Source: Erythrobacter sp. (GTDB lineage Bacteria; Pseudomonadota; Alphaproteobacteria; Sphingomonadales; Sphingomonadaceae). From it: a stretch of DNA of 64,000 nucleotides. The position numbers were made by a program, and so were the translations under genes. Shown here in pieces: positions 34,735 to 48,784 of the stretch (positions within the stretch are counted from its first letter, which is position 1; each line of letters begins with the position of its first letter). The DNA lies in NCBI GenBank assembly GCA_030148605.1, contig JASBTD010000056.1:1-64000 (forward strand), in the 5' to 3' direction. The notes below the pieces were generated by a model, which worked only from the letters and a program-made list of their open reading frames with translations, had not been told where the DNA came from and made no database searches.

Positions 34735-34787
34735 AAAGGTGGTGAGCCCTGCAGGGGTCGAACCTGCGACCTACTGATTAAAAGTCA
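34735..34787 (-). repeat. att repeat, left (displaced tRNA-Lys 3' half)
   Basis: 53 bp identical to the 3' part of tRNA-Lys (anticodon loop to CCA and a little beyond) except 34753 and 34765. Those two bases form one Watson-Crick pair in the T stem, changed from T-A to A-T, so pairing is kept. It is a remnant and has no 5' half. Confidence 0.92.
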
Positions 34788-34924
34788 TAGGGTTTTGCAG
34801 ACTACCCTAACCTTAGACCCATGCATTCACTCAATTTCTGAATTTTACAACGTCAAATCAGTGCTTTTGGATGAATATTTATCTCCGCTGCACCCCTTTA
34901 TTCCCCGCCAGGACTCGCTATGTA

Positions 34925-34943
34925 TGTCCGGTTAATGTCCGGT
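34925..34943. promoter_or_regulatory. Paired TGTCCGGT sites near left att (probable recombination arm sites)
   Basis: TGTCCGGT occurs at 34925-34932 and again at 34936-34943, an 11-bp period (one DNA turn). The same arrangement occurs near the right att site at 48100-48118. Suggests binding sites for integrase or its accessory factor. It also lies in the integrase leader and could bear on its expression. Confidence 0.6.
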
Positions 34944-34966
34944 TTAGAGGTGTAAGGGGGTTTCAC

Positions 34967-36274
34967 GTGAGTTTGCAAATCTTCAGACGTGGTCCGGAAA
35001 GAATCACTCGTGGCACCATAGGCGCTGCATGGAAGCAGCGGGCGTCTAATCAGCGTACGGTCATCAGCGATGCAGAGTGCAGGGGACTAGCTTTGGTTGT
35101 GAACGCCACCAGCATGAGTTGGCGCTTCGACTACAAGCCGCGCGGTTTGAACCCGCTAACGGGCAAGCGTTGGCCTTCGCGATCCATCACCATTGGCAAC
35201 CCGGAAACCCACTCTCCGGACCAAGCCCGCTCAGAAGCTGGTCGGCTAAAAGGGCAAGCCAAGGCAGGTAAGGACCCCGCCCTTCGAAAGAAGGCTGAAC
35301 TCGAGTTAGAAGCCCAGAAGCGTAGCCAAACAATGGCCCGCCTGGTTGAAGAGTACGCTATCGCTCTCCCGCAGAGGCAGAAATTTCGGGGCGGGCGCGG
35401 AAAGTTATCCCCCCGCGCGGTGGCTGAAGAGCTGGCTCATGTTCATGCCGTCATCAGGGAATTAGATGCAGGGGACAAACCTGTTACAGCAATCTTGCCC
35501 AAGGAGATCACGAGGATGATCGCCAGCCTCTCAGATAAGCCAGCTACAGCAAAACATCGCTACGGGGCGCTATCGCGTTTCTTCGATTGGGCTATGGGCG
35601 AGGAACTAATCGCCTCAAACCCATGTGAAGGCGTACCAAAAGCAAAACGGCCGCGCCCACCGAATCCCCGGCGCAACTTTCACACACCGCAGCAGCTTGC
35701 ACAATTGTGGTCGGCCATTGAGCATACTGAAGGGCTGCAGCAGGTCCATCGCGACTTACTTCAGTTCCTGATTGTTGTGCCGTGCAGAAGAAGCGAAGCC
35801 ACTGGCATGGATTGGCGTGATGTCGACTTAGAAAGCGCGGTTTGGTCACAACCCGGTACACAGACAAAGAACGGCGATCCGCACCGGTTTCACATCCCCC
35901 CACTTGCACTCGAGATCTTGCATAGACGCCACCAGAATGCCGGAAGGCCTGATGATGGTCTTGTCTTTCCCGCCCCCCGGTCCCAGCGACCGATAGATAC
36001 ATTTGGCAAGCTCAAAGCAGCCGTTGGCTCCAATTTGCCATCACATTTTGACTGGCGTGTTCACGATCATCGGCGTTCGTTCGTGACAGCTCTTGGAGAG
36101 CTGGGCGTAGATGAAGCTCTGTTAGATTCGATCCTCAACCATCGTCAGGCCGCTACACGCGGTGGTGTTCTCGGAGTCTATCAATACGCGCAACGTTGGC
36201 CTGAACAGAGAGCCGCGATGAAGGATTGGGATCAACTAATATCCAACGCAATCCGCGGGCACGTGAATAAATGA
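34967..36274 (+). CDS. Tyrosine recombinase/integrase
   Basis: The 435-residue product from GTG 34967, preceded by a strong AAGGGGG site, is preferred over an in-frame ATG 96 bp upstream. It has a DUF4102-like N-terminal arm-binding domain (SDAECRGLALVVNATSMSWRFDYK, ITIGNPETHSPDQAR), a central core-binding SAM-like domain (about residues 120-220) and the catalytic domain. Catalytic residues are visible as R274 in CRRSE, H366 and R369 in HDHRR, H392 in LNHR and Tyr405 or Tyr407. Placement directly beside the left att repeat and reading inward is standard for tRNA-targeted islands. It should catalyse integration and excision at tRNA-Lys. Confidence 0.95.
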   Translation: MSLQIFRRGPERITRGTIGAAWKQRASNQRTVISDAECRGLALVVNATSMSWRFDYKPRGLNPLTGKRWPSRSITIGNPETHSPDQARSEAGRLKGQAKAGKDPALRKKAELELEAQKRSQTMARLVEEYAIALPQRQKFRGGRGKLSPRAVAEELAHVHAVIRELDAGDKPVTAILPKEITRMIASLSDKPATAKHRYGALSRFFDWAMGEELIASNPCEGVPKAKRPRPPNPRRNFHTPQQLAQLWSAIEHTEGLQQVHRDLLQFLIVVPCRRSEATGMDWRDVDLESAVWSQPGTQTKNGDPHRFHIPPLALEILHRRHQNAGRPDDGLVFPAPRSQRPIDTFGKLKAAVGSNLPSHFDWRVHDHRRSFVTALGELGVDEALLDSILNHRQAATRGGVLGVYQYAQRWPEQRAAMKDWDQLISNAIRGHVNK

Positions 36275-36861
36275 GTAGGAGACCTCCAAGAGAGCGTCCC
36301 GTTGGCATCGCTGCTGTAAGGACACAGGCTGACTTAGATCGCTTAGAGCAAGATAAACAGAATGCGTTTGAAGCCATCGAACAACTGAAGATGGCGGCCC
36401 GTCAAATCGATCGACTGAATGGTCCGGAATGCTGGGATCGAGGTATAGCGCGTTCGTGCCTCGAGGCGTGTCTCGCACTATCGCGTGATGTCCTAGATAA
36501 AGAAGAACAATCGGGCGAGATAACTATTGTCGATGCGAGCATCGTCTCAACCGTTTTGGGCGATCTGATCGCACATCTTGATGAGTTGGCTGCCGGACGC
36601 AGTGACAAGCGGCTCCGCCCAGAACGGGGAGGAGCAAGCCGTACACACGACAATAATGACGCGAATTTCAAGTTGTCTGCTCGGGCGTTTGTCAACGCGT
36701 TAAGCACCAAATATCGCGAAGAAGGTCACAATGATTACAGGGCACGCGCTCGCAGGGATGTTGCACGCGAATTCGCTGAAATGGGAATCAGGTTCCACGA
36801 GAAAGATATCAGCACAACGCTTCTCGAAAGCTGGGAGAAGCGCCGAAACGACCGCCGCTAA
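36271..36861 (+). CDS. Island protein of unknown function
   Basis: This 196-residue hydrophilic protein has no family I can name. The N-terminal half is predicted helical with a coiled-coil look (RTQADLDRLEQDKQNAFEAIEQLKMAARQIDRL). The C-terminal half is basic (ARARRDVAREFAEMGIRFHEKDISTTLLESWEKRRNDRR). It overlaps the integrase stop codon by 4 bp (ATGA), so it is translationally coupled to int and is probably co-expressed with it. Confidence 0.8.
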   Translation: MSRRPPRERPVGIAAVRTQADLDRLEQDKQNAFEAIEQLKMAARQIDRLNGPECWDRGIARSCLEACLALSRDVLDKEEQSGEITIVDASIVSTVLGDLIAHLDELAAGRSDKRLRPERGGASRTHDNNDANFKLSARAFVNALSTKYREEGHNDYRARARRDVAREFAEMGIRFHEKDISTTLLESWEKRRNDRR

Positions 36862-36949
36862 CATCAGAGCGACCTCCTCACACTAGGTGCAGAGAATGTG
36901 AGCAGATACGTGCGCTAGAGGACGCTGGCATTCAAAAACGGAGCCAGCC

Positions 36950-37180
36950 ATGAACGACGAAATCAAATTATCAAATTTACCCAAGCGGGTCGATCGATTG
37001 ACGGCCGCGCAGCTCATTACTCAATTATACTTTCCTATCTCTCACCGCACACTGGAAAGGTGGCCGATTGGGTGGCGAGTTGTGAACGGCCGCGCTATCG
37101 CAGATGTGGCTGAATTGTTCGCGGAAGCTGAGCGCAGGCTGCATGCCTCGCCTCAAATTATGGGAGGGGCGCGGACATGA
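36950..37180 (+). CDS. AlpA/excisionase-like helix-turn-helix protein
   Basis: This small 76-residue protein has the layout of AlpA/MerR-type winged helix proteins: LTAAQLITQLYFPISHRTLERWPIGWRVVNGRAIADVAELFAEAERR, where ISHRTLERW is the recognition-helix region and VVNGRAIADVAELFA the wing and dimer part. Such proteins next to an integrase act as excisionase or as regulator of int in satellites. It overlaps the following gene by 4 bp. A close match to any characterised Xis cannot be shown here. Confidence 0.72.
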   Translation: MNDEIKLSNLPKRVDRLTAAQLITQLYFPISHRTLERWPIGWRVVNGRAIADVAELFAEAERRLHASPQIMGGART

Positions 37181-37401
37181 GTTCTCTCCAAAAGGACCGC
37201 GATACGGCTGGCGTCCAATCTTGCCGCAATTGTGCTTACCTAGCGAAAGGTTGGCGCTTCCCAGAGTGTCATAGGCACGCCCCTCAGCTCTCTATTGAGC
37301 GCGCATGCGACGATAACGCGATCGAAACCGTATCCCGCTGGCCGAATGTGTCTTTGAGCGATTGGTGCGGCGAGTTCGCCGCCGAAAAAAAGCGTAGGTG
37401 A
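37177..37401 (+). CDS. Small Cys-rich island protein
   Basis: This 74-residue protein has a possible metal-binding cluster: C16-x2-C19, then C31-x-H-x-H at about residues 31-35, and a later Cys near residue 66 in SDWCGEF. No family is recognised. Tight coupling (4-bp overlap upstream, 4 bp to the primase start downstream) places it in the replication operon. Confidence 0.75.
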   Translation: MSSLQKDRDTAGVQSCRNCAYLAKGWRFPECHRHAPQLSIERACDDNAIETVSRWPNVSLSDWCGEFAAEKKRR

Positions 37402-37405
37402 CACT

Positions 37406-38287
37406 ATGGGCCTCGCTGCAGACTATGCCTCTAGTGGGCTGGCACTAGTTTCGATACCAAAGGGAATGAAGGGGCCTCGCTCCCTTGGTTGGAACCGCAA
37501 GGAAAACATAGTTTGCGAGCCAGGTGTCGCAAGTCGCCTGACAGGGAATATCGGTCTCGCTCACGCTTATAGTATTCCGACCCCCACCATGGCGCTCGAT
37601 GTCGATGATATGGTTGGGACGAAGGAATGGTTGGCGGAACGCAGGATTGATCTGGATGCCCTACTCAGTGCTGAAGATAGCGTGCAAATCGATTCTGGAA
37701 GGCAGGGACGGGCAAAGCTCCTGTACCGGTTACCGGCTGGTGTGCAGCCAATAAGGACCATACAGATCGAGGACCCTGCAACCGGTGCTATGATTCTCGA
37801 GTTCCGCTGCGCGACGAGCGGCGGGCTCACCGTGCAGGACGTGCTGCCACCCTCCATCCACCCTCTTACGGGCAAAGCCTACCAATGGGGCGGAAACGGC
37901 GATTGGCGTTCCCTTCCGGAAATCCCTGCAGAACTTCTCGCCGTTTGGCAGGAAAAAGTGAAGAATACTGCGGGGAGGCGTCCGTCCAGTCTCATGACTC
38001 AGTCTAAGGCTGTGGATGATTCGCCTCGGCAGCGTGCCCGTGTCGAAGAGGCATTGGAGTTTATCTCCGCAGATTGCTCCTACGAGCAGTACCGCAACGT
38101 GGTGTGGGCTATCCTCTCCCTATGTTGGAATGATGCTGAAGACATTGCGCGCCGCTGGTGCGCGACGGCGTCTCATAGGTTCGACGAGGAAAACTTCCAG
38201 CAGGTCGTGGCCAGCCACGATGTGTCCCGCACTCAAACAATGGGCACTCTCATCTATCTCGCCCGCGCGGGAGGCTGGAATGGCTAG
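37406..38287 (+). CDS. Primase-polymerase (AEP/prim-pol) with primase C-terminal domain
   Basis: This 293-residue protein has an N-terminal archaeo-eukaryotic-primase/prim-pol fold with the metal-binding D65-x-D67 in MALDVDDM, the IDSGRQGRAKLLYRLP strand-loop and PPSIHPLTGKAYQW of bifunctional primase/polymerase domains. The C-terminal helical part (about residues 215-290, ALEFISADCSYEQYRNVVWAIL...DEENFQQV) matches a PriCT-type domain. It should prime, and possibly copy, island DNA. It is coupled to the helicase gene that begins 8 bp before its stop, a standard pairing in satellites. Confidence 0.88.
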   Translation: MGLAADYASSGLALVSIPKGMKGPRSLGWNRKENIVCEPGVASRLTGNIGLAHAYSIPTPTMALDVDDMVGTKEWLAERRIDLDALLSAEDSVQIDSGRQGRAKLLYRLPAGVQPIRTIQIEDPATGAMILEFRCATSGGLTVQDVLPPSIHPLTGKAYQWGGNGDWRSLPEIPAELLAVWQEKVKNTAGRRPSSLMTQSKAVDDSPRQRARVEEALEFISADCSYEQYRNVVWAILSLCWNDAEDIARRWCATASHRFDEENFQQVVASHDVSRTQTMGTLIYLARAGGWNG

Positions 38288-39614
38288 CGCTTCTGTCACT
38301 CCGATTCTGCGGTTGGATCCACTGGTTGAGCTGCAGAAGACCATCGCCCTGATCAAACTCGCCGGAAAGGTTGGGTTTCTTGATTTGGACGAAGTGGATC
38401 AGCTCCGTTCTAGGGGGCGCCGCGGAGATCTCAACATTTACTCACAGAAGGATGCAACACTTTTGATGAAGAGGTTTCTCGAAGGCCTTCCGGTTACTTC
38501 AGATCCCAAGAAGGTGATTGCCGATTTCCTCGTGAGCCCCAACACCACGGTTTACGATGAGATCGCATTCAGCCCGCTAACTACTCCTCCCACGACCCTA
38601 AACCTATGGGTGGGGCCAACGGTGGATTCGGCCCGCGGAAACTGCGCGGTTGTGCTCAGGTACCTGCTGGATGTTGTCTGTGCGGGAGATCGGGCCTGCT
38701 ACGACTATCTGATCCGCTTTCTCGCCCACATGGTTCAGCGGCCCGAAGAAAAACCGGGCATTATGCCGGTGCTCCTAGGTGGCCAGGGAACTGGGAAAGG
38801 GACCTACTTCCAGCTGGTGAAGAAGATCTGGTCACACAGCACGCTGCTTGTCTCGGATGTCAGTCATGTGGTGGGCGGCTACAATGCGGCACTCGAACAC
38901 ACCTACGTGGTATGCATGGATGAGGCGTTTTTCAGCGGCAACCGGCAAGCTGTCGACCGTCTCAAATCCCATGTCACAGAGCCGACGATCACCATCGAAG
39001 CAAAATACCAGCCCCGCCGCACAATTCAGTCATACCATCGCTATTTCGCCGCCAGCAACCACGCCCATTTTGCGCAGGTGGACGCGGACGACCGACGCTT
39101 TCTATTCCTGCGGATGAGTGACGCCCGCAAAGGTGACTTCGCGTATTGGGACGCGCTCCACGGTGCGATTGATGATCCGGCGGTCATTGCCGCCTTCCTT
39201 TTCTGCCTGCAGCGGTACCCGCTCGGCAATTTCAATGTCCGGCAACGCCCTACGACCAGCGAGCACATGGACCAGAAGCTGCGGTCCCTGACCGGGTTCA
39301 ATCGCTATTGGTATGAGTGCCTGCAAGTGGGGAAACCTACAGGCGCTTACGGACCCGAATGGGAACAGGGTGCGTTCGTCAGCACGGAAGACCTGCAGCG
39401 CAGCCTAAACGAATATCAAAAAGGTACGCGGAGGTGGGATCCCCCCCAGGGACGCGACATCAGGACGGCATTAAAGCGCCTCTGCCCCTCGGCAATCGCG
39501 CGCCGGAGGATGCGTCACAGCCGCCAAGAACGTGGCTATATTTTGCCATCGTTGCCAGATGCGCGGGCTGAATTCGCTGCCGCGATGGGTGGAGAAGTCG
39601 ATTGGGACGATTAA
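38280..39614 (+). CDS. SF3-type (DUF5906) replicative helicase
   Basis: The 444-residue product from ATG 38280 is preferred over an in-frame start 264 bp upstream, which would overlap the primase gene heavily. Motifs of a superfamily 3/AAA+ helicase of the DUF5906 (NrS-1 polymerase-associated) type are clear: Walker A GGQGTGKGT (K173), Walker B VVCMDEAF (D214, E215), and the sensor/motif C block YHRYFAASNHAHFAQVDADDRRFLFL. It probably unwinds the island origin with the neighbouring prim-pol. The pair gives the element autonomous replication potential after excision. Confidence 0.9.
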   Translation: MASASVTPILRLDPLVELQKTIALIKLAGKVGFLDLDEVDQLRSRGRRGDLNIYSQKDATLLMKRFLEGLPVTSDPKKVIADFLVSPNTTVYDEIAFSPLTTPPTTLNLWVGPTVDSARGNCAVVLRYLLDVVCAGDRACYDYLIRFLAHMVQRPEEKPGIMPVLLGGQGTGKGTYFQLVKKIWSHSTLLVSDVSHVVGGYNAALEHTYVVCMDEAFFSGNRQAVDRLKSHVTEPTITIEAKYQPRRTIQSYHRYFAASNHAHFAQVDADDRRFLFLRMSDARKGDFAYWDALHGAIDDPAVIAAFLFCLQRYPLGNFNVRQRPTTSEHMDQKLRSLTGFNRYWYECLQVGKPTGAYGPEWEQGAFVSTEDLQRSLNEYQKGTRRWDPPQGRDIRTALKRLCPSAIARRRMRHSRQERGYILPSLPDARAEFAAAMGGEVDWDD

Positions 39615-39865
39615 CTGGGTGTCCTCTAGGGACTTTCCTGGCAAATTTGCCGGCACTTGCCACCATCTATGGCAAGCAAAAACGTCGGATTTCTGAGGGG
39701 TTGAGGGGTATTTGCCACCATTGCCACCACTTTCTAAAAAACAGGATGAAAACAGAAATAGAAGAGTTTTCGGAAATTGCTGGCAAACGTGGCAAAACGC
39801 ACTTCCATGGGTCGGCGAACAATGATTTTGAAGCCCTCGAAAGGGCCGTTGCTCCAATATCAACC
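39615..39865. other. Noncoding interval after the helicase gene
   Basis: About 250 bp between the helicase stop and the degraded UvrD-like gene on the other strand. Short open frames cross it, but none shows a ribosome site or recognisable motif. Confidence 0.4.
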
Positions 39866-41013
39866 TCAGCCAATCAGGTCGTGGAGATACTCCGGACCCG
39901 GTGTAACAACGCTTACAAGAAGTCTGTCCCGCGCTCTCGTGCAAGCCACGTACCGCAGACGGCGCTCTGTCTCGTATACGCCGTCTAGTTCGGCTTCGTC
40001 TGCTGCGTCAACAACACGCTCATCTAATGGCAGTATGCCCTCATCGCAGGCGATTACAGCTACGGCGCGAAATTCAAGCCCTTGGGCTAGGTGCCTGTTC
40101 GCAATTGTGATCTTGGTTTTGTTTGAGCTTTCCGACACCGCTGCCCGAGCACGGTCCACCAATCCGGGAGTACGGACAAAGATGCCGATTTCTTCAGATT
40201 TGATTCCATCTTTGAATGCAGCCTCAAGGAAATCACTTACCGCATTCCTTTCTTCGCCTCTTCCGCAAAGATACCTATCTCAGGGGCCGGGCCCTCAAAA
40301 GTCGAAACGGTGCCGGACCGTTCATCCTTCAAGCCATCAACATCGCGCAAACGAAGCGGCAGGAGGCGGTCAGCAGCAATGCAAATTTGCTGAGAGATTC
40401 GATAACAAACCTTCAACGTTGAAGATCTGCCCCGCATATCCACGCCAAGAGACTTCCAACTATACGGGTGCTGGAAAATTCTCTGTCCCAAATCACCTGT
40501 GAAGAAAAGCGCATTGGTTGTCTCTGGTGCGATTGCTGCGAAAAATCGAAGTTCGGCAGTTCCGAGATCCTGTGCTTCATCGAGGATGACATGATTAAAG
40601 GGCTTGTTCGTCTTTTCAGACAAATGGCAGGCAAGCTTCGTGAAGACGTCAGTCCAAGTCAGGTAATTCGACCTATTCAGCTTATCGCGAACGCCTTCGA
40701 AAAGAGGCCAAAGTTTCTGCCTCTGCTTAAGTCAAAGGCGGCTTTTCCGGCTCGTGCGCTCGATGTTCATGTATTCTTCGGTTGAAGAGACTCCACAGGC
40801 GCCAATTACGTTCGACCACTCAGAGACATAAAACCAATCGGAAAAGCCCACGTGTTTAAGTTCGCAAGCGGCTTCGATTACGACGTTGCGAATAACCCTT
40901 TCAGAAGCAACCAATGGTCGACCGTCAAAATCAAACTGGAATGGGTCCTCTGCATTCTCGCGGAAAGATGCTGCCGCCACCCACTCCAGCTCGCCGGTCT
41001 TTACTACTGACAC
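39866..41013 (-). pseudogene. UvrD-like 3'-5' DNA helicase remnant
   Basis: Three minus-strand fragments read as one superfamily 1 helicase. From upstream: FRENAEDPFQFDFDGRPLVASERVIRNVVI and KRRSLVK-like tail, then an in-frame TGA at 40732-40734, then KQRQKLWPLFEGVRDKLNRSNYLTWTDVFTKL, the DEAQD box (motif II), TGDLGQRIFQ (motif III) and LKVCYRISQQI (motif IV). A frameshift near 40245-40255 separates these from ERNAVSDFLEAAFKDGIKSEEIGIFVRTPG and the motif VI stretch RLRYVACTRARDRLLVS at the C terminus. The Walker A region upstream of 41013 is missing. It is non-functional as it stands. UvrD-like helicases on islands often belong to defence modules. Confidence 0.85.
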
Positions 41014-41270
41014 CGTTTTCTAAAGGAATACGAAAATATACGGTGAACTGTCCTCACACAAACAAAACATCACGCAGATATTCGCACCATCAATTGACAG
41101 AAACAATTGCCATCCAATATTCTAAGACCGAATAATTTATGTATTAAACGATTAAAATAAAGACGGCTATCTTTTGTTCATCATCTGTCGACTAATCATA
41201 TTTACTTGCGCTATTCGAATTCAAAAGGCTCGCAAACCGGTGATAAATTCACGATCTTTCTCACCTTCAC

Positions 41271-41309
41271 AAAGCAGGCCCATTTTGAAAATCAAAATGG
41301 GCCTGCTTT
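41271..41309. repeat. Perfect 18-bp inverted repeat with 3-base loop
   Basis: An arm of 18 bp at 41271-41288 is exactly complementary to 41292-41309 around an AAA loop. The arms begin AAAGCAGGCCC and end in the same sequence reversed. It lies 8-39 bp before the next gene. It would form a very strong RNA hairpin (terminator or attenuator for the gene downstream) or a cruciform. No T run follows directly on the + strand; TTT closes the 3' arm. Confidence 0.9.
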
Positions 41310-41347
41310 GGCTTTGAGTGGCAAGAAGCCGGCGCCATAACGCTTCG

Positions 41348-42151
41348 ATGATCATTGACCGTCCACTTTTAAAGCCTCGAGACCTTAAAGGCTCCGACTC
41401 CTTGTGGGAGGGTGGAAGTCTAACAGAAAGTGACGTATGGAAAAATATTCCAGCTGTCGCCAAAGCCGAAATGGATGCAGGCAGTCAATCAAAGATTTTA
41501 GTATATAGTTATTGTGACTCGTCGCGCGAGAGCCGATTAAACAAAATATCCGAGATACTCGAAAACTTCGAGGTAATCGAGGCTAGCCAACAAAACATGG
41601 ATATTTTGTTAGCGCGAAGGAATGAAATCGATATCCTGATAGTGTCAGGTGATGATGTGAGGCGAATAACTTCAAACTTTCTAAATCCAAATTTCAATCT
41701 CGTTTATCAAAAGGTTTCCTTCTCAATTTCGAGCGACAATCGACCGAACCGTAGATCTCAGCTTCTTAGACTTGGGTTCGACGATGCCTTTACTTGCAAG
41801 ACACCAAACGACGAAATTGCCATGCGTATCTTTTCCATGGCGACCAAGGCTTTTCTTTACTCTCTTACTTCTGAGGCAAAATTTGAGCACGAATTTGAGA
41901 AATTCTGCTCAAAGAATGTCATTCTTCCGCTTGGCTCAGGCGATCGGAAAAGGCTAAAAACCCTTTACCAGAATATGAATAAGGTTGTGCCATACTCGTC
42001 TTTGGCTAATTATGATTTTGCAACTAATTCATATAGCCTTCAATCTCTTAAAGTTCAAATTTCAAAATTAAGAAGAAAACTTGCGCCAGCACAAATTATC
42101 GCAGTTCCGTCATCCGGTTACTCTTTGGTTGTCGGAGACCAGTTCATGTAA
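41348..42151 (+). CDS. Receiver-like + OmpR-type winged-helix regulator (island)
   Basis: This AT-rich gene encodes about 267 residues. The start is uncertain: ATG 41348, a GTG at 41318 and ATG 41471 are all in frame, none with a good ribosome site. The middle (SKILVYSYCDSSRE to about residue 160) looks like a degenerate receiver domain ending in the LLRLGFDDAFTCK pattern. The C-terminal 90 residues form an OmpR-type winged helix (LQSLKVQISKLRRKLAPAQIIAVPSSGYSLV). No sensor kinase is adjacent. It resembles DNA-binding orphan regulators. Function unknown. Confidence 0.75.
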   Translation: MIIDRPLLKPRDLKGSDSLWEGGSLTESDVWKNIPAVAKAEMDAGSQSKILVYSYCDSSRESRLNKISEILENFEVIEASQQNMDILLARRNEIDILIVSGDDVRRITSNFLNPNFNLVYQKVSFSISSDNRPNRRSQLLRLGFDDAFTCKTPNDEIAMRIFSMATKAFLYSLTSEAKFEHEFEKFCSKNVILPLGSGDRKRLKTLYQNMNKVVPYSSLANYDFATNSYSLQSLKVQISKLRRKLAPAQIIAVPSSGYSLVVGDQFM

Positions 42152-42366
42152 TCAGATGAAAATTGTCGATTTTCAATTTCTGCGTGATCGATTTTTTCAG
42201 TGGTCAATATTAGACGCTCTGCTATTAGCTCGCACAAAGATTTAATATACTTCGAAGCGCTGTCCTCCGTGTCGGGGGTGAGTAGTTGGATTTGGTAAAC
42301 CTGTATTACCGATGTCATTATAAGTTCTTTTGCCTCGAGTAGTTGAGATTTAGGTTCTCTCTTCAA
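42118..42366 (-). CDS. Small hypothetical helical protein
   Basis: This 82-residue frame starts at TTG 42366, with AAGGA 6 bp upstream, and continues KREPKSQLLEAKELIMTSVIQVYQIQLL. It is mostly helical and charged, with a region of possible coiled coil. The end overlaps the convergent regulator gene by 34 bp. No family is recognised. The ribosome site makes it plausible as a real gene but it remains weakly supported. Confidence 0.45.
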   Translation of the reverse strand: MKREPKSQLLEAKELIMTSVIQVYQIQLLTPDTEDSASKYIKSLCELIAERLILTTEKIDHAEIENRQFSSDYMNWSPTTKE

Positions 42367-42430
42367 GTCATTTCCTTAAAAAAAGATTTTTGGTACAGTC
42401 AAATTCTAATCAGAGACGAGAACGACCGCT

Positions 42431-42889
42431 GTGTTACGGACAAAGATTCTAATAGAGGAGCGACTTGACGGTCGCCCCGGTTCGGAAGCCAGGAGATTGG
42501 TTGAACTTAGCTCCTACCTCGAGGGCATTGAGCACATTTACATTTTCCAAATTACATCGTGGTCCGTATTTTTCGAATCAACTTACGAATTTACGATTGG
42601 CGATAAATGTAGAATTTGGTTGCCAGGTTTGAGGTCGGTAAGTGTGATTATATCCCGCCGATCTGGGAATTTGTTTGCCGCGATATTCTCTGAACCTATT
42701 GATTCGAAAATCGTAAGAGAGGTGCGCTTCTCAAACTGGACGAACCCAATGGAAAGCACTAGATCAGTAGAGTTGAGGCGGATTTTTCCCACAAGGTCGG
42801 CTAATTTGACTTTCTCCTTGTACTTAGCCCTTGGGTGTTCAGTCTTCTTTTGGTTCTTCGTGTTAGTATACTTTGGCAGCAGAGTCTAG
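42431..42889 (+). CDS. PilZ-like protein with C-terminal membrane anchor
   Basis: This 152-residue protein starts at GTG 42431. The beginning (KILIEERLDGRPGSEARRLVELSSYLEG) and the middle strands (TYEFTIGDKCRIWLPGLRSVSVIISRRSGNLFAAIFSEPID) fit the small PilZ-type beta barrel found in Sphingomonadales, though the c-di-GMP-binding RxxxR and DxSxxG motifs are not clear. The last 25 residues are hydrophobic (LYLALGCSVFFWFFVLVYFG), one membrane span. Read as a tail-anchored or peripheral membrane regulator, with c-di-GMP binding unproven. Confidence 0.6.
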   Translation: MLRTKILIEERLDGRPGSEARRLVELSSYLEGIEHIYIFQITSWSVFFESTYEFTIGDKCRIWLPGLRSVSVIISRRSGNLFAAIFSEPIDSKIVREVRFSNWTNPMESTRSVELRRIFPTRSANLTFSLYLALGCSVFFWFFVLVYFGSRV

Positions 42890-43009
42890 ATGTCTAGAGA
42901 TATGGTCGTATTCCACGATTAACCTTCCTTTTAGGTGTCGGTTCCAATTAGATGTAGATGACGTAGCCTAAGGATTGGATCCGGACCGAGTTGTGCTCTG
43001 CGACCTGAA

Positions 43010-44225
43010 AACTTGACCGTTCGCTGTGGGAGTTTTGCCAAAAGCATCCTTAGTTGGACTAATAGTAAAAGTATTTACTGAAGGCAGGCGATGCCAATGC
43101 ATCGAAATTATCGGGCGGAGCAAGGTGTTCGTGGTGAACCAGGGTAAGGAAGGAGAACGCCTGTGACGGAGATCTACCGAAAGGCAGTGTGCAGTCAGGC
43201 GACCTACTGCAGCTAGAAGAAGAGGTAAGCGGGATTAATGCCGTCGGAAATGCGGCCGTCGAAAATGCGGCGGTTGCGTTAACTAGAAGATAAAAACAGT
43301 CGATTGAGGAAGATCGTGGCGGACCGGACGCTCGATTGCGAGATGCTGCAGGACGTTATCAATCGGAAGCTCTGAGGCCGGATCGGAAGCGTGAGCTTAT
43401 TGACGCGGTCCGGCAGGAATGGCAGGCTCCGAGTTTTAGGGCTTGTTTGGCTTTGCAGATTGATCGTTCGACCAATCACTACCAGTCCCGCCGAAGCGTT
43501 CCGACCTTTTTGAATAATCGCATCAAGGAGATCGACAAGACGCATTTCCGCTATGGCTATCGGCGCGTGTATTACTTCCTGCGCCCCGATGGTTGGGCTG
43601 TGAACATGAGGATGGTGTACAGGCTTTTTGGGGAGTTCGGTCTTCAACTGCACAATAAAATGCACAAACGGCCGGTCAAAGGGAGGCTGAGTGTGGGCCG
43701 TGCACCGGCGGTACAGCTGAACGATGCCTGGGCCATGGACTTGTTTCATGATCACCTAGCGACTGGGCTCAAGCTGCGCTTCTTGACGGTTGTCGACAAG
43801 TTCGCGCGGTTGTTACCGCTCAACGATCCCCGGTTCAACTACTGTAGTGAGGAAGTGGTCACCACACTGGATCGCGCCTGTCGGAAGATAGCCTATCCCA
43901 AAACGATCAGGGTAGACAATGGTAGCGAGTTTATCTCTCGTGAAATGCATTTGCAGGCATACCAACTTGGTGTCGTACTGGACTTCCCCCGCACTGGTAA
44001 GCCTACAGACAAGGCGTTCATCGATGCGTTCAACAGCAAGCTGCGCAGCGAGTGTCTGAACGCTCACTTGTTCTTCAGCCTCGAAGGTGCTTGCGAAAAG
44101 CTTGAGGCATAGCGTAGACGCTACGACCAAGAGCGACCCCACAGCGCGATCGGGAGTATCCCCGGGATCTTGCTGGCAAACTCAGCCGGTGAAACCAGCC
44201 CACCGGATATGAGAAAGGAGTAAAA
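43010..44225 (+). mobile_element. Degraded IS3-family insertion sequence
   Basis: The interval holds decayed orfA and orfB of an IS3-type element. Traces of orfA at about 43140-43380 (…RRLR, LEDKNSRLRKIVADRTLDCEMLQDVINRKL) are broken by several stops, and orfB follows. Possible terminal repeats are degenerate (ACTTGA…GAGTTTT near 43011-43045 and inverted near 44225-44240), so the ends are approximate. No target duplication can be shown. Confidence 0.7.
43336..44223 (+). pseudogene. IS3-family transposase (OrfB), nonsense-mutated
   Basis: The frame encodes an IS3-type integrase-core transposase: RKRELIDAVRQEWQAPSFRACLALQIDRSTNHYQSRR, YGYRRVYYFLRPDGW, WAMDLFHD (first Asp), IRVDNGSEF (second Asp) and FIDAFNSKLRSECLN. 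The position normally Glu in the third catalytic motif is Asp. A TAG at 44110-44112 replaces the conserved Trp codon of the last block, after which the frame continues with RRRYDQERPHSAIGSIPG to a natural stop at 44223. The upstream OrfA is also broken, so the element is inactive. Confidence 0.85.
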
Positions 44226-44700
44226 CTCTAGGCTCAAGTGGTCCGACGTTGGGTAGCAGTGTAAAAGTGGGCCTAGACGCTTTCTACATACGTCCACACT
44301 CGTATTCTAAATATCTCCAAAATGGTGGTTTATACGGTAGCAGATACGCATCGTTTGTGCGATCGACAGGTTGTGCTTTCGGGCACCCTCCGATGTACCT
44401 AATGAATATTTTAAATATCGAAGGTGCAAACCCGTTTGGTTCCTCTTCGGGGTTACTGAAGCCGCCGGGCTCATCTTACCTTGGGTCTGGCGGCACTTTT
44501 TGATGTTACTGACTTACGAAACAGTGCTTCCTCAGGTGCCAGTGACGTGACCCCCTGATTTTCCTCCAAGTTCGATTAGAGTCCAGCCTTGAAGGTCGGG
44601 TAGACGGCGCCGCGAACGAGGCTTTCATCAGAGCAGCTCATTGCCGTGCTTAAGAACGCGGAGGCGGGCGCGAGGACCACTGACTTCACCCCTCTGAGCG
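44226..44700. other. Interval between IS remnants, no gene recognised
   Basis: About 475 bp. A short + strand frame (44249-44503) has no recognisable feature. A sequence near 44540-44600 (reverse strand reads AATCAGGGGGTCACG) resembles an IS end, which is not proven. Confidence 0.35.
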
Positions 44701-44714
44701 CAGTTTCGGCACAG

Positions 44715-45365
44715 TCAAAATCTGGTGTTGAAGATCAAAAAAGAGATCAGGTGTGCATCAAGGTAAGCGGTTCGGTTTCTAGATCCCGGGCTCATTGGCA
44801 GCGACCCATAGGTGTGTTGAGAAGAGTTTGATGGCTGCGAGGAAATGGTCGGCGCGTTTGTCCATCGTTTGGCCAAGTCTCTGGTGCGCTTGAGTCTTGC
44901 GAAGAAACGCTCGACCAGATTGCGGTGTCGGTAGGTCAACGAGCTGAAAGCGAAGCCCCTCTTACGATTGGCCTTGGGCGGGATGTTGGCGGAGTTCCCG
45001 CGCGCGCTTCGACCTTGTCGCTAGTGGCGTCGCTGTCAGAGGTCTTATCAGCGCGAATGGGGCTGCCCTCGGGCACAAAGTCGAGCAGGGAACCAGCCTC
45101 CTTGCAGTCGCTCCCTTGCCCTTCGGAAAGGTGCAGCTCGATCGGTAGCTCTCGGCCGTCGACTAGCACGTGGATCTTGCTCGTCAGACCGGCCCGAGAA
45201 CTGCCCATGCAACGATTTGATCCCCCATTTAGGGTAGCAACTTGCTAGAGAACCCTGATCGAGGAACTGTCGATCTTCACCAATTCTCCGTCGAAAACCT
45301 ACGGAACCGCCGCCCGCACAAGCCGATTTATGAGTTAGCGGTCGAGGTCTCGTGCAATTTCCCAA
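44715..45365 (-). pseudogene. IS5-family (IS427-like) transposase remnant
   Basis: Fragments in different frames match the IS5/IS427-type transposase: MGSSRAGLTSKIHVLVDGRELPIELHLSEGQGSD (the GRSRGGLTTKIHA motif region), IRADKTSDSDATSDKVE and, near the end, YRHRNLVERFFARLKRTRDLAKR (the YRNLVERFF motif). Frames shift at about 45205 and about 44935, and the catalytic region is scrambled, so it is a dead copy. Confidence 0.75.
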
Positions 45366-45462
45366 ATTAGTCTCATTATGAACCCTAATATGGCAACCTT
45401 TGCGATACCATTTGTGACATAGATCAATATCGTCCAGCGCAAAAATTTATAGGCACAAAGTG

Positions 45463-46263
45463 ATGGACGAAATCAAAGATAAAATTGCTGTTGTGGATCA
45501 AAACGACGAAGCGAGATCTGCCCTCTCAAAGCTATTAAAGATGCTGGGTTACGATGTGCTTGAAGCACCGACTGGCGCCGATTTATTGAAAATGATAATC
45601 GATTCCAGAGGTATAAACGTTGCTATAATAAATATACATTTGTCCGATTTTGATGGAGTATCTTTAATCAAGGAAATTCGCCACCGCCACAGGTCTAATA
45701 AAGAATTATCAATTCTGGTGACCACAGCTGATCCGGATACTACCGAAGTAGTTGAATGCCTTAAAGCAGGGGCAGATGACTACATACACTACCCTCTGAG
45801 ACTATCGAAAATTTCTCAAAACCTTAATGAAGCAGGAATAAAGAGGAGGAGTTTTACTGGAAATAATGATAGGTTAAAATTTAATTTTGATGCTGAAATA
45901 AAGTCAAGAACCATTTCGCATAGTTTAACGGAAAATAATTTAGATTTAAGATCTATTATTAAGTGGCGGAAGAGTCGAGAAGAATATTTCAAATCATTAC
46001 GCTTTACTGATCCATATTGGGATATCTTGTTGGAATTGACTAACGCTTTTCAGCAAGGCGTTGAATCGCCTCTATTAAGTGTATACGCTGCTTCTAACGT
46101 CCCAATGTCAACAGCTGCTCGGTATGTTCAAGCACTTCATGAGAAAGGGCTGGTGACACGATGGGAGGACCCTATGGATAGGCGGCGAATTTGTGTTTCG
46201 CTCACTGAAGAGACATTTGAACAAATGCGTGAATGTATGGGACAAATTAATATTGATCTTTGA
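45463..46263 (+). CDS. Pseudo-receiver + MarR-like winged-helix regulator (island)
   Basis: The 266-residue protein starts at ATG 45463. Residues 1-125 follow the receiver fold (acidic D12 and D15, NVAIINIHLSDFDG, ECLKAGADDYIHYPLRLSK) but the phospho-acceptor Asp is Asn57 and the usual Lys-Pro is Tyr-Pro, so phosphorylation is unlikely. A C-terminal winged helix (about residues 175-260: WDILLELTNAFQQG, AASNVPMSTAARYVQALHEKGLVTRWEDPMDRRRICVSLTEET) has the look of MarR-type DNA-binding domains of Sphingomonadales. It probably acts as a phosphorylation-independent regulator. The surrounding DNA is AT-rich. Confidence 0.78.
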   Translation: MDEIKDKIAVVDQNDEARSALSKLLKMLGYDVLEAPTGADLLKMIIDSRGINVAIINIHLSDFDGVSLIKEIRHRHRSNKELSILVTTADPDTTEVVECLKAGADDYIHYPLRLSKISQNLNEAGIKRRSFTGNNDRLKFNFDAEIKSRTISHSLTENNLDLRSIIKWRKSREEYFKSLRFTDPYWDILLELTNAFQQGVESPLLSVYAASNVPMSTAARYVQALHEKGLVTRWEDPMDRRRICVSLTEETFEQMRECMGQINIDL

Positions 46264-46351
46264 CCTAGGAGGAAAAGCCTCATGGCTTAGACGGTAGGTA
46301 GAACGGGCGACCTGCCCCCTGTCAATTGGGCAGTTTCTTATAGAATTCGTT

Positions 46352-46660
46352 ATGCCTCTTCCGAATATCATCTCCGGCAAAACGCAGCGCTGCCAAGCGC
46401 AATCGAGGAGGAGCAAGAAACGCTGCAAGAATCCCGCTGCGTACGGCATGCCGGTGTGTCGTTATCACGGAGCTCGGCGGCCAGAGACGATAAAATCTGG
46501 CGCCGACCATCCTAACTATAAACATGGCCGAGAGACGATAGAGGCTAAGGAAGAAAGAAGTCGACGGCTCGCTGAATTGCGTGACCTTGAGGCATTAACT
46601 TTCTCGCTCGGATTTGCTTCTGGACCTAAATGGCGTGGCAGAAAGCCCAAGGTCCGCTAA
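46352..46660 (+). CDS. Small phage-type protein with HGG-like motif
   Basis: This 102-residue basic protein has the pattern RCQAQSRRSKKRCKNPAAYGMPVCRYHGARRPETIKSG, the HGGxSTG/HGG-type small Cys/His motif found in phage and island proteins (four Cys/His likely binding one metal: CQA, CKN, CRYH). The C-terminal part is helical and basic. Its role is unknown. The start has no strong ribosome site. Confidence 0.65.
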   Translation: MPLPNIISGKTQRCQAQSRRSKKRCKNPAAYGMPVCRYHGARRPETIKSGADHPNYKHGRETIEAKEERSRRLAELRDLEALTFSLGFASGPKWRGRKPKVR

Positions 46661-46732
46661 CAAACCAGTTACGGAATTAAGAGGTTTCCAGCTGCGTGCC
46701 CAAAACCAGCCGTGTAGCTCTGAAAATGCTGC

Positions 46733-47713
46733 TCAAAATGGAATGTCGTCGTCTAGATCATTCCAGGACGATGGAGACGAAGGCAGCGCCCCCTTGGGTA
46801 GTGGAAGGTTCGTGACCACAAACAAGTTGAGGATGTCATCCCGGTCCATAAACATTACCTGCGAGCGCTTCGTCGCATCGAGTTTATTGCCAATCCAGTT
46901 CCGGGTCTGCTTCGTTATCTCCCCACCAGCGACTATGAAGGCGTGGTCTACCAGCACCCGCCTGCTCATCTCAGGGTCGAATATCTCGTGCCCCAGCATC
47001 ATCGTGATCTGATTGTGTAGCTCCGCGACGCTGTTCTTGCTCGCCCCCGATGCATCCAACTTACCCTTCTTGGCTTGGATTCCGAAGTAAAGGATGTGGT
47101 GTGTCGGGAGCGTGAATTTCATCCACACGTCCTTGCCCTATTCGAGCGCCTTGTCTTTGTGGCCCGCCGCCGTGATGCGGTGGAAGCCCAGCTGTCTAAA
47201 CAGCGGCAGTAAGGCCTCCTCGATTAATTCGTCTTCAGAGCACTTGTCGAGGTAAACGACTAGCTGGTCGCGCTTCTCTATCTCAAAAAGGGTAAGTGGG
47301 CGGTGCGGGTTCGCGGCTTGCGCGATGGTGTTCGTAGCGATGTGACGGAGTTGGCCGACACCATTCTCATCGTAGAACGCCTGCCATCCCTCGCGCGCCA
47401 AAACGATATTCAGCGCACCCAATGCCCGCGACCGGTCCGGGTCGTCTTCGGTCGCCTCTCCCCGATCCAGTACCCGCTGAATCACACGTAAGAACGCGTC
47501 GGGAGGAACGGAGGCGTTTGCGTGCGGCATTGCCAACACGTCCGCCATTCGCTCGGCTGTCCAAACGGGCCGCGTTTCACCGCGGTGGACGTATTCAAGT
47601 TCGCAATCCTCAAAGAACTCGGTGATGTATTTGCTAGACCGATATTGGAAATAATCAGCATCGCCGCAAACGATGCGACCAAGCTCTCGAAGGTTGCGGT
47701 TCTTCCATCCCAT
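46733..47713 (-). pseudogene. AbiJ-like N-domain + PD-(D/E)XK nuclease gene broken by an amber codon
   Basis: The single frame from ATG 47713 (an in-frame TTG 39 bp upstream is also possible) to 46733 is broken only by TAG at 47138-47140. The N-terminal half (RNLRELGRIVCGDADYFQYRSSKYITEFFEDCEL...RALGALNIVLAREGWQAFYDENG) resembles the N-terminal domain of AbiJ-type abortive-infection proteins. The C-terminal half (EGKD-type block GKDVWMKFTLPTHHILYFGIQAKKGKLDASG, then HNQITMMLGHEIFDPEMSRRVLVDHAFIVAGGEITKQTRNWI) is a restriction-endonuclease-like fold with the Q-x-K motif. TAG replaces the residue in the E-Y-G-K-D motif. Both frames stay open for hundreds of bases on each side, so the mutation is recent, or an error. 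Confidence 0.7.
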
Positions 47714-47752
47714 GGTCGGAACATAACGTGACCTAGTTGCTCTGCCTAGCAA

Positions 47753-48160
47753 TCCCAGGATTGAACATGTGCCCGAAGAACAGGCGCCAGAATCGACCGG
47801 CAGTTAGTTAAGCAAATTGCTGCAAATATCGCGGATCCTCCGTCGTCAGCCTTTTCTGAGTAGCTCGCTGAGGCCGGACCATCTGCTTTCCATCCAGTTG
47901 CAGACATTCACCTCATCGACAGGCACCAAATTTGAATCCAGCTGATCGAACGCGCAGAATAGTATGTAAGGGGTGTTTGGGTCCCATCTGGCGAGAAAAG
48001 GGGGTTCCCGGGGGTGGCGGTGCGCTAGCTAGAAAATCAGGGGTCGGGGTTCTTCGACAGAGAGTAGACGGCGGGTAGCAGACGTGAAATCTGCTTGATT
48101 GTCCGGTCAAAGTCCGGTTCAAAATTAACGAAAAGCAGGCTGCTGAGCCTAAACCATTGA
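47753..48160. other. Noncoding interval near right att site
   Basis: About 410 bp between the defence-like gene and the right att site. It contains the second pair of TGTCCGGT-type sites at 48100-48118. No gene is recognised. Confidence 0.5.
48100..48118. promoter_or_regulatory. Paired TGTCCGGT-type sites near right att
   Basis: TGTCCGGT at 48100-48107 and AGTCCGGT at 48111-48118, again with an 11-bp period and in the same orientation as the pair near the left att site (34925-34943). They lie 43 bp from the right repeat and suit an arm-site for integrase. Confidence 0.6.
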
Positions 48161-48213
48161 AAAGGTGGTGAGCCCTGCTGGGGTCGAACCAGCGACCTAC
48201 TGATTAAAAGTCA
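48161..48213 (-). repeat. att repeat, right (within intact tRNA-Lys)
   Basis: 53 bp that match the left att repeat, differing at 48179 and 48191. It overlaps the 3' half of the intact tRNA-Lys gene, so the island end restores a working tRNA. Confidence 0.92.
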
Positions 48214-48241
48214 GTTGCTCTACCGACTGAGCTAAGGGCCC
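48166..48241 (-). tRNA. tRNA-Lys (anticodon TTT)
   Basis: The 76-nt minus-strand sequence folds as a complete cloverleaf: acceptor GGGCCCT/AGGGCTC (one G-U), D arm GCTC/GAGC, anticodon stem ACTGA/TCAGT with loop CTTTTAA, T arm GCTGG TTCGACC CCAGC, discriminator A and an encoded CCA. It is the integration target of the island on its 3' side. Confidence 0.96.
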
Positions 48242-48283: not shown

Positions 48284-48784
48284 TCACCTAGGGACAGGGC
48301 GCGGCTTGGTCAAGCGCGCATATAGCTGAGCGACCGACAAATTGCTGACCGGGTCGCGCCAGTCCCCGGCAATCGCCTTGGCTGGCTGTAAAACGAACCC
48401 GCGCGTCCGGAATTGGGGATGCGGAATGATCAGAGTCGCGCTCGCCCAAATGCCGCCATCCCACAGCACGATATCCAGATCGAGCACGCGCGAAGCCCAG
48501 CGCTGGCCGCGCCGCCTGCCGAACACCTGCTCGATACCCTTGAACAGGCCAAGCATGGTTTCCGGCCCACGCTGCGTCTCGACCACGGCGGCGGCATTGG
48601 CATACCAACGTTGCGAGGGGCCAACAGGCGCGCTGTCGATCACCGGCGAGATCGCGTGGAACAGCAGCCCGACATCTTCCAGCACTTCCACCGCGGCTTC
48701 GATCACCTTGCGCGGCGGCCCGTCGCGCACAGTGCGCATGTTAGAGCCCAGCGCGATCAGGTAGAGATGCGAAGGCTGGCTCAA
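48284..48784 (-). CDS. folK: 2-amino-4-hydroxy-6-hydroxymethyldihydropteridine pyrophosphokinase
   Basis: This 166-residue protein is HPPK, which pyrophosphorylates the pterin precursor in folate synthesis. Key segments are LIALGSNMRT near residue 10, SAPVGPSQRWYANAAAVVETQ near residue 50, RRRGQRWASRVLDLDIVLWDGG near residue 95 (the pterin/ATP site with D-L-D-I) and LIIPHPQFRTRGFVLQP. It overlaps the aguB stop codon by 4 bp, so the two are co-transcribed. Confidence 0.94.
   Translation of the reverse strand: MSQPSHLYLIALGSNMRTVRDGPPRKVIEAAVEVLEDVGLLFHAISPVIDSAPVGPSQRWYANAAAVVETQRGPETMLGLFKGIEQVFGRRRGQRWASRVLDLDIVLWDGGIWASATLIIPHPQFRTRGFVLQPAKAIAGDWRDPVSNLSVAQLYARLTKPRPVPR

What the first reader, a model, noticed from the sequence alone, without database searches (positions are those of the whole stretch)
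46733..47752. AbiJ-like/REase defence gene broken by an amber codon inside the nuclease motif
Both halves lie in one frame that is otherwise open for about 1 kb. A TAG at 47138 sits just after the Glu of the expected E-Y-G-K-D motif, exactly in the nuclease core. A fresh nonsense mutation, a self-inactivated toxic effector or a sequencing error would all fit. The domain pairing (AbiJ-type N domain with an Mrr-like nuclease) next to a tRNA is a defence-style arrangement.
Basis: partly seen in the sequence, partly recalled or inferred. Interest (0 to 1): 0.75.

Follow-up and report, generated by a model that had tools for sequence, protein, structure and literature searches.

The report
Broken defence-type nuclease on mobile island
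A bacterium carries a predicted DNA-cutting protein of a kind thought to fight viruses, riding on a mobile DNA element next to a tRNA gene, but this copy is cut short by one premature stop codon and is probably dead, while intact relatives occur in many groups of bacteria.

Summary
On the minus strand, ATG 47713 to TGA 46733, one 326-codon frame is open except for a TAG at 47140-47138 (codon 192), directly after an invariant Glu. Relatives 57-81% identical read through: 78 of the 80 genome loci kept (of 131 found) are unbroken. TAG is an ordinary stop here: none of 40 tRNA genes found reads it and RF1 is present. So this is a nonsense-broken copy of an intact family; a sequencing error is not excluded.

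The C-terminal half is a predicted PD-(D/E)XK nuclease (VIA-align Z 9.9 to AspBHI). The N-domain also precedes an Abi_C/AbiJ region, PDC-S32 C-termini and a TIR-like effector, like the published AbiJ-NTD architectures (PMC3710099). The gene is terminal cargo of a 13.4 kb tRNA-Lys integrative element with integrase and 53-nt repeats; a relative has the empty site. An IS3 transposase in the element carries a nonsense codon too. Most likely: a recently killed AbiJ-like nuclease gene on a decaying island. New member of a known kind; defence untested.

The parts
46733..47713 (-). Broken gene: 326-codon frame (N domain + nuclease domain), ATG 47713, TGA 46735-46733
47138..47140 (-). In-frame TAG, codon 192, directly after invariant Glu191; 47 of the 48 rows (read-through query included) have Tyr, 1 His
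47300..47713 (-). N-terminal AbiJ-type domain (residues 1-138), mainly helical with a small beta hairpin
46736..47299 (-). C-terminal PD-(D/E)XK nuclease-fold domain (residues 139-326); invariant E191, D195, Q213, K215
46733..47128 (-). Downstream ORF left by the TAG; begins after D195, so any restart product lacks the conserved Asp
48166..48241 (-). tRNA-Lys (anticodon TTT), attachment site of the element
48161..48213 (+). Right copy of the 53-nt att-like direct repeat (3' part of tRNA-Lys)
34735..34787 (+). Left copy of the 53-nt att-like direct repeat (96% identical)
34871..36274 (+). Tyrosine integrase (Arm-DNA-bind_3 + Phage_integrase) beside the left repeat
37406..38287 (+). Prim-Pol / PriCT_2 primase gene of the element
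38016..39614 (+). DUF5906 / phage DNA primase-helicase part (ORF as listed; true start probably further in)
43336..44112 (+). IS3-family transposase in the element, also ended by an in-frame TAG
44715..45365 (-). Short overlapping ORFs of a DDE_Tnp_1 transposase in different frames; probably broken
45460..46263 (+). Response-regulator receiver plus winged-helix protein, cargo
46352..46660 (+). Small protein, partial match to phrog_3678 (unknown function)

Best explanation
The feature is a recently inactivated gene. Its intact relatives encode a single-protein, AbiJ-like effector: a variable N-terminal recognition/control domain joined to a very conserved C-terminal PD-(D/E)XK nuclease. Proposed action of intact copies (inferred, after the scheme published for AbiJ-NTD proteins): the N domain holds the nuclease in check and responds to an invader component, after which the nuclease cuts DNA of the invader or of the host. 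In this genome one TAG at codon 192 ends translation inside the nuclease core, before the conserved Asp195 and Gln213-x-Lys215; a restart downstream would lack Asp195. So no active nuclease is expected. The gene is the terminal cargo gene of an integrative element in tRNA-Lys whose cargo region is decaying. Shown: frame, stop, intact family, fold prediction, domain swapping, element ends. Inferred: loss of activity, defence role, switch mechanism, recency.
For: Frame and stop. Unbroken relatives: 78 of 80 genome loci, 10 of 11 viral loci. E191, G193, D195, Q213, K215 invariant in 48 of 48 rows. TAG not recoded: 40 tRNA genes found, none with a CTA anticodon; RF1 present; 10 of 41 non-overlapping ORFs of 200 aa or more end in TAG, two of them being the broken genes discussed here, others such as the Vut_1 gene being ordinary. 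Recent: no second lesion in the frame; 3 deviations at 118 columns conserved at 95% or more, 16 of 47 other rows have as many or more; dN in the nuclease part 0.05-0.13 against relatives while dS is mostly saturated. Fold: C domain Z 9.9 AspBHI, 9.6 MspJI, 9.3 FokI, 9.3 Avs4. Domain swapping: N-domain relatives end in Abi_C (E 2.1e-20) and PADLOC AbiJ, PDC-S32 (3 proteins) and a TIR-like effector. Element: repeats (30), integrase and primase (36, 76), empty site (37).
Against: No reads: the TAG could be an assembly error. Recency is weak evidence, since the nearest relative is only about 81% identical and synonymous sites are saturated; the 3 deviations all lie after the stop (66 of 117 conserved columns lie there, so this may be chance). 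No Pfam, PADLOC, NCBIfam or PHROG model covers the protein at its cut-off; at the same weak level as AbiJ_NTD3 (7 of 48 members) unrelated families also appear (Pan3_PK 15 of 48, LssY_C 8 of 48). PADLOC AbiJ matches 1 of 48 members and Stk2 4 of 48, weakly. The N domain has no structural match (best Z 3.4). Defence has not been tested for any member, as far as my searches show.
Confidence: 0.75

Rival explanations
1. Sequencing or assembly error: the living cell has an intact gene.
For: A draft of 66 contigs; the rest of the frame is flawless and the family is under strong constraint.
Against: The IS3 transposase 3 kb away also ends at an in-frame TAG and DDE_Tnp_1 fragments lie in several frames, so the region looks decayed in its own right. 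Assembly is 97.78% complete, 0.44% contaminated.
Confidence: 0.12
2. The TAG is read through or suppressed, giving regulated or low-level full-length nuclease.
For: The frame stays conserved after the stop; two TAGs interrupt otherwise intact frames in one element.
Against: None of 40 tRNA genes found has a CTA anticodon (the assembly is not complete); RF1 is present; the two TAGs stand at different residues, Tyr in relatives of the gene and Trp in the IS3 relative; TAG ends ordinary genes.
Confidence: 0.06
3. Selected self-inactivation: loss of a costly, self-toxic effector rather than neutral decay.
For: Broken copies recur: 3 of 13 genomes with the family or a remnant in the genome draws (own TAG; G986 TAA at codon 235; G418 remnant), 2 of 80 genome loci, 1 of 11 viral loci, plus an IS21-split plasmid copy and a frame-broken E. 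albertii plasmid copy.
Against: No control rate for other mobile cargo genes was measured; lesions fall in both domains; transposases in the same island are broken as well.
Confidence: 0.25
4. Not a defence protein but a maintenance or modification-dependent nuclease of the mobile element itself.
For: Best structural matches include modification-dependent AspBHI and MspJI; the gene sits on plasmids (46 of 72,556 records), in a prophage and near vapBC.
Against: The N domain is shared with Abi_C/AbiJ, PDC-S32 and TIR-like proteins; some neighbours are restriction or defence genes.
Confidence: 0.2

Closest known systems
AbiJ-NTD fusions to REase-fold domains (Anantharaman et al. 2013, PMC3710099; section 12 read in full; passages)
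   Same: N-terminal AbiJ-type domain exchanged between HEPN, TIR-like and REase-fold effectors in single proteins.
   Different: This N domain is only weakly similar to AbiJ_NTD3; whether it equals NTD1 or NTD2 of that paper could not be checked, as the alignments lie in a supplement that I did not see.
AbiJ (Lactococcus abortive infection protein; Abi_C, HEPN)
   Same: Related N domain in front of Abi_C in L157.
   Different: The C-terminal effector here is a PD-(D/E)XK nuclease, not HEPN.
Mrr-type / modification-dependent REases (AspBHI, MspJI)
   Same: Predicted fold and conserved D...QxK core; Z 9.9 and 9.6.
   Different: No N-terminal DNA-reading SRA-like domain found by the searches made; sequence profile match to Mrr_cat is poor.
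P4-like satellites and other integrative elements carrying antiviral cargo (PMC9122126, seen only as a search listing)
   Same: tRNA attachment site, tyrosine integrase, primase-helicase, variable cargo at one end.
   Different: No helper phage or packaging genes identified; IS-ridden and partly broken.

Membership tests
AbiJ proper | C-terminal Abi_C/HEPN domain | tested here: not met
   Abi_C is not among the 22 Pfam families matched by any of 48 members; the C domain matches PD-(D/E)XK structures instead.
AbiJ-NTD effector proteins (broad architecture) | N domain shared with AbiJ-type proteins of other effector types | tested here: met
   Profile A1 finds its N part in L154-L157 and L161 (E 3.6e-28 to 2.9e-7 among 262 ORFs), which end in PDC-S32 (3), Abi_C/AbiJ (1) and TIR-like (1) regions. 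The link to L157, the only Abi_C case, is the weakest.
AbiJ-NTD effector proteins (broad architecture) | Homology to Pfam AbiJ_NTD3 | tested here: inconclusive
   Query E 0.076, 12.9 bits against a cut-off of 32.5; 7 of 48 members at E up to 10; hhalign probability 79.5 over 44 columns, cross-controls 1.8 and 0.6.
PD-(D/E)XK nuclease superfamily | Fold of the C domain | tested here: met
   AlphaFold2 model pLDDT 84.4; AspBHI Z 9.9, rmsd 3.7, 137 residues aligned; MspJI 9.6; FokI 9.3; Avs4 9.3. The tool notes that Z 7-8 is common for models without clear matches.
PD-(D/E)XK nuclease superfamily | Conserved D...(D/E/Q)xK core | tested here: met
   D195, Q213, K215 in 48 of 48 rows; D and QAK in register with Mrr_cat in the hhalign alignment. 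Catalytic role is inferred.
Mrr_cat (PF04471) | Sequence-profile match | tested here: inconclusive
   2 of 48 members at best E 0.01; hhalign probability 5.4, 107 columns.
Pseudogene by nonsense mutation | Frame interrupted where relatives are intact, stop not decoded | tested here: met
   Reads were not available.
tRNA-integrated mobile element | Integrase, att repeats at a tRNA 3' end, empty site in relatives | tested here: met
   in L112 the flanking Vut_1 gene ends 36 bp from tRNA-Lys. Of 14 same-genus loci fetched only 3 reach a Vut_1-like match (gaps 36, about 560 and about 1340 bp).
Phage satellite | Mobilisation by a helper phage | not testable with these tools
   Only int plus primase-helicase organisation seen.
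Anti-phage defence system | Protection against phage | not testable with these tools
   Needs an experiment with an intact relative.

The most novel reading that the evidence does not exclude
The broken gene is the visible tip of an unmodelled, mobile single-gene defence family spread over several phyla, in which a fast-changing sensor domain of a fold not matched in the PDB controls one of the most conserved mobile nuclease domains (57-81% identity over the loci kept), and whose copies are repeatedly switched off by nonsense codons, frameshifts or insertion sequences because the intact enzyme is costly to its host.
Probability: 0.25. Interest if true: 0.55.

Novelty: new member of a known kind. 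Interest (0 to 1): 0.32.

Why it matters
The single broken copy is ordinary decay of mobile cargo. The family behind it is more useful: it has no Pfam, NCBIfam, PADLOC or PHROG model at its cut-off, is annotated as hypothetical protein in the plasmid and E. coli records that I looked at, and 191 of 5,426 complete E. coli genomes hold a relative. It pairs an AbiJ-type sensor with a DNase, so it would let the sensor-effector idea published for AbiJ-NTD proteins be tested directly, and recurrent inactivation would allow the cost of carrying such effectors to be measured.

Tried and rejected
Chance adjacency of two ORFs: rejected, relatives are continuous. Naturally split gene: rejected for the relatives examined; none is split at this codon. 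TAG recoding or suppressor tRNA: no support. A conserved operon partner: not found; the commonest neighbour cluster, read as type I HsdR from the Pfam and PADLOC results, occurs in 9 loci, directly upstream in 7 of the 8 printed, among the 96 loci used; the neighbour scan took 147 nearest ORFs of 100-1200 aa, one per side, and was cut at 49,000 residues, without a control set. Solved structure by sequence: nothing meaningful. N-domain fold in the PDB: no match (Foldseek best E 0.29, VIA-align best Z 3.4); that is no proof of a new fold. Viral structure library: weak nuclease and Rpb5 matches only. Phage records: none of 50,697 holds a relative. A related element by integrase: one partial relative, 62% over residues 148-461, among 199 genomes; not followed. 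Branch-specific selection test: not possible, synonymous sites saturated. Papers: searches (six protein accessions, no hit) found no work on this very family; most subscription journals and supplements are outside the library.

Names recalled rather than found by a call: folK for the gene at 48284-48784, IS5 as the family of the DDE_Tnp_1 fragments, the active-site reading of D, Q and K, and the P4 comparison.

Full report
What is there. On the minus strand the window holds a frame from ATG 47713 to TGA 46733 that is open for 326 codons except for a TAG at codon 192, + strand 47138-47140. The own genome (66 contigs, 2.6 Mb, 97.78% complete) holds this gene once.

The family. Read past the stop, the protein found 131 relatives in the genome collection, of which the best 80 were kept. 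These 80 are 57-81% identical; 78 are unbroken, the exceptions being L028 (two TAG codons, both at positions with Gln in the query) and L075 (frameshift near residue 85). Eleven viral contigs hold relatives, ten unbroken; 46 of 72,556 plasmid records and none of 50,697 phage records do. By record titles the hosts include Pseudomonadota, Actinomycetota, Cyanobacteria, a Desulfovibrio, and bins named Verrucomicrobia-type Chthoniobacteraceae and Bacteroidota-type Cyclobacteriaceae. Yet the gene is patchy: 6 of 298 genomes of the own taxonomic family, own included. In E. coli 191 of 5,426 complete genomes have a relative; the one chromosomal copy that I looked at lies in a prophage. The pattern is that of a mobile gene.

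The stop. Residue 192 is Tyr in 47 and His in 1 of 48 aligned rows, the query's Tyr being my reading. Most loci were found by a seed that contains this Tyr (64 of 80); sets free of that bias give 16 of 16 Tyr, 5 of 5 Tyr, and 4 Tyr, 1 His, 1 Phe of 6. Neighbouring E191, G193 and D195, and Q213 and K215, are invariant in 48 of 48 rows. The N-terminal fragment ends at E191 and the downstream ORF starts after D195, so neither fragment has a full core. TAG is an ordinary stop: 10 of 41 non-overlapping ORFs of at least 200 aa end in it (two are the broken genes themselves); RF1 is encoded; none of the 40 tRNA genes found has a CTA anticodon. I conclude nonsense, not recoding.

Age. The frame has no second lesion. 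At 118 columns conserved in at least 95% of the other rows the query deviates at 3, and 16 of 47 other rows do so at 3 or more. All three deviations lie after the stop, where 66 of 117 such columns lie, which could be chance. dN in the nuclease part is 0.05-0.13 against eight relatives while dS is mostly saturated. The loss looks recent against the age of the family, but no close copy exists to date it.

Domains. The model of the read-through protein has mean pLDDT 84.4. Residues 139-310 match PD-(D/E)XK enzymes: AspBHI Z 9.9, MspJI 9.6, FokI 9.3, Avs4 9.3 (rows within 1 are tied). The invariant D195...Q213-x-K215 fits the core of that fold (inference). A direct profile comparison with Mrr_cat sequences gathered here is weak, probability 5.4, but sets D and QAK in register. 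The N domain, folded alone at pLDDT 91.4, has no PDB match. It resembles AbiJ_NTD3 only below threshold (hhalign probability 79.5 over 44 columns, against 1.8 and 0.6 for cross-controls); unrelated families appear at the same weak Pfam level, so that scan alone means little. More telling, genome searches with the family profile found the N domain in front of other effectors: PDC-S32 C-termini (L154-L156), Abi_C/AbiJ (L157) and a TIR-like region (L161). The N part is more variable than the nuclease part (mean column identity 59% against 78%). This is the logic described for AbiJ-NTD proteins, where the NTD is proposed to sense viral components and hold a C-terminal toxin in check, and where fusions to REase-fold domains were already listed (PMC3710099; section 12 read).

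Setting. A 53-nt direct repeat (96% identical) of the 3' part of tRNA-Lys lies at 34735-34787 and 48161-48213. A tyrosine integrase sits beside the left copy and Prim-Pol and DUF5906 genes follow. In a genome of the same genus (L112) the left flank gene (Vut_1) ends 36 bp from tRNA-Lys with the right flank gene next, so the 13.4 kb element is absent there; in the other 13 loci fetched the stretch mostly does not reach that gene. The broken gene is the last cargo gene before the tRNA. The IS3 transposase of the element is likewise ended by an in-frame TAG: reading past it doubles the rve_3 score (30.9 to 60.3 bits), and a Croceicoccus relative continues through the site with Trp. DDE_Tnp_1 fragments lie in several frames. 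The cargo region is decaying.

Recurrent loss. Among 13 genomes with the nuclease family or a remnant in the genome draws, 3 copies are broken: the own one, G986 (TAA at codon 235) and G418 (remnant). An E. coli plasmid copy is split by an IS21 element and an E. albertii plasmid copy is frame-broken. Without a control rate this is only a lead for the cost-of-effector idea.

Verdict. The gene is a dead or dying copy of an AbiJ-like DNase carried by an integrative element; a sequencing error remains possible. It is a new member of a known kind. The interest lies in the intact, widespread, unmodelled family, whose defence role is inferred and untested.

Noticed in passing
window 43336-44112 (+): IS3-family transposase inside the same element also ends at a single in-frame TAG; homology continues past it.
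   Followed up: partly
window 34735-48213: 13.4 kb integrative element in tRNA-Lys with 53-nt repeats, integrase and primase-helicase genes, absent at the same site in L112.
   Followed up: partly
L028 6001-6987: A relative in a Geminicoccaceae bin carries two TAG codons, at positions 121 and 213, both with Gln in the query; neighbouring ORFs of the locus look normal under the standard code.
   Followed up: partly
L160 (G986) 1501-2505: A relative with an independent nonsense codon (TAA, residue 235) in the nuclease domain.
   Followed up: no
L117, L118 (E. coli and E. albertii plasmids): Relatives next to vapBC are split by an IS21 element or frame-broken.
   Followed up: no
L119 12001-12981: Chromosomal E. 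coli relatives (189 of 5,426 genomes at 80-90% identity to the plasmid copy); the one examined lies in a prophage between rspB and ydfJ.
   Followed up: partly
L154-L157, L161: The N-terminal domain occurs in front of PDC-S32, Abi_C/AbiJ and TIR-like C-termini.
   Followed up: partly
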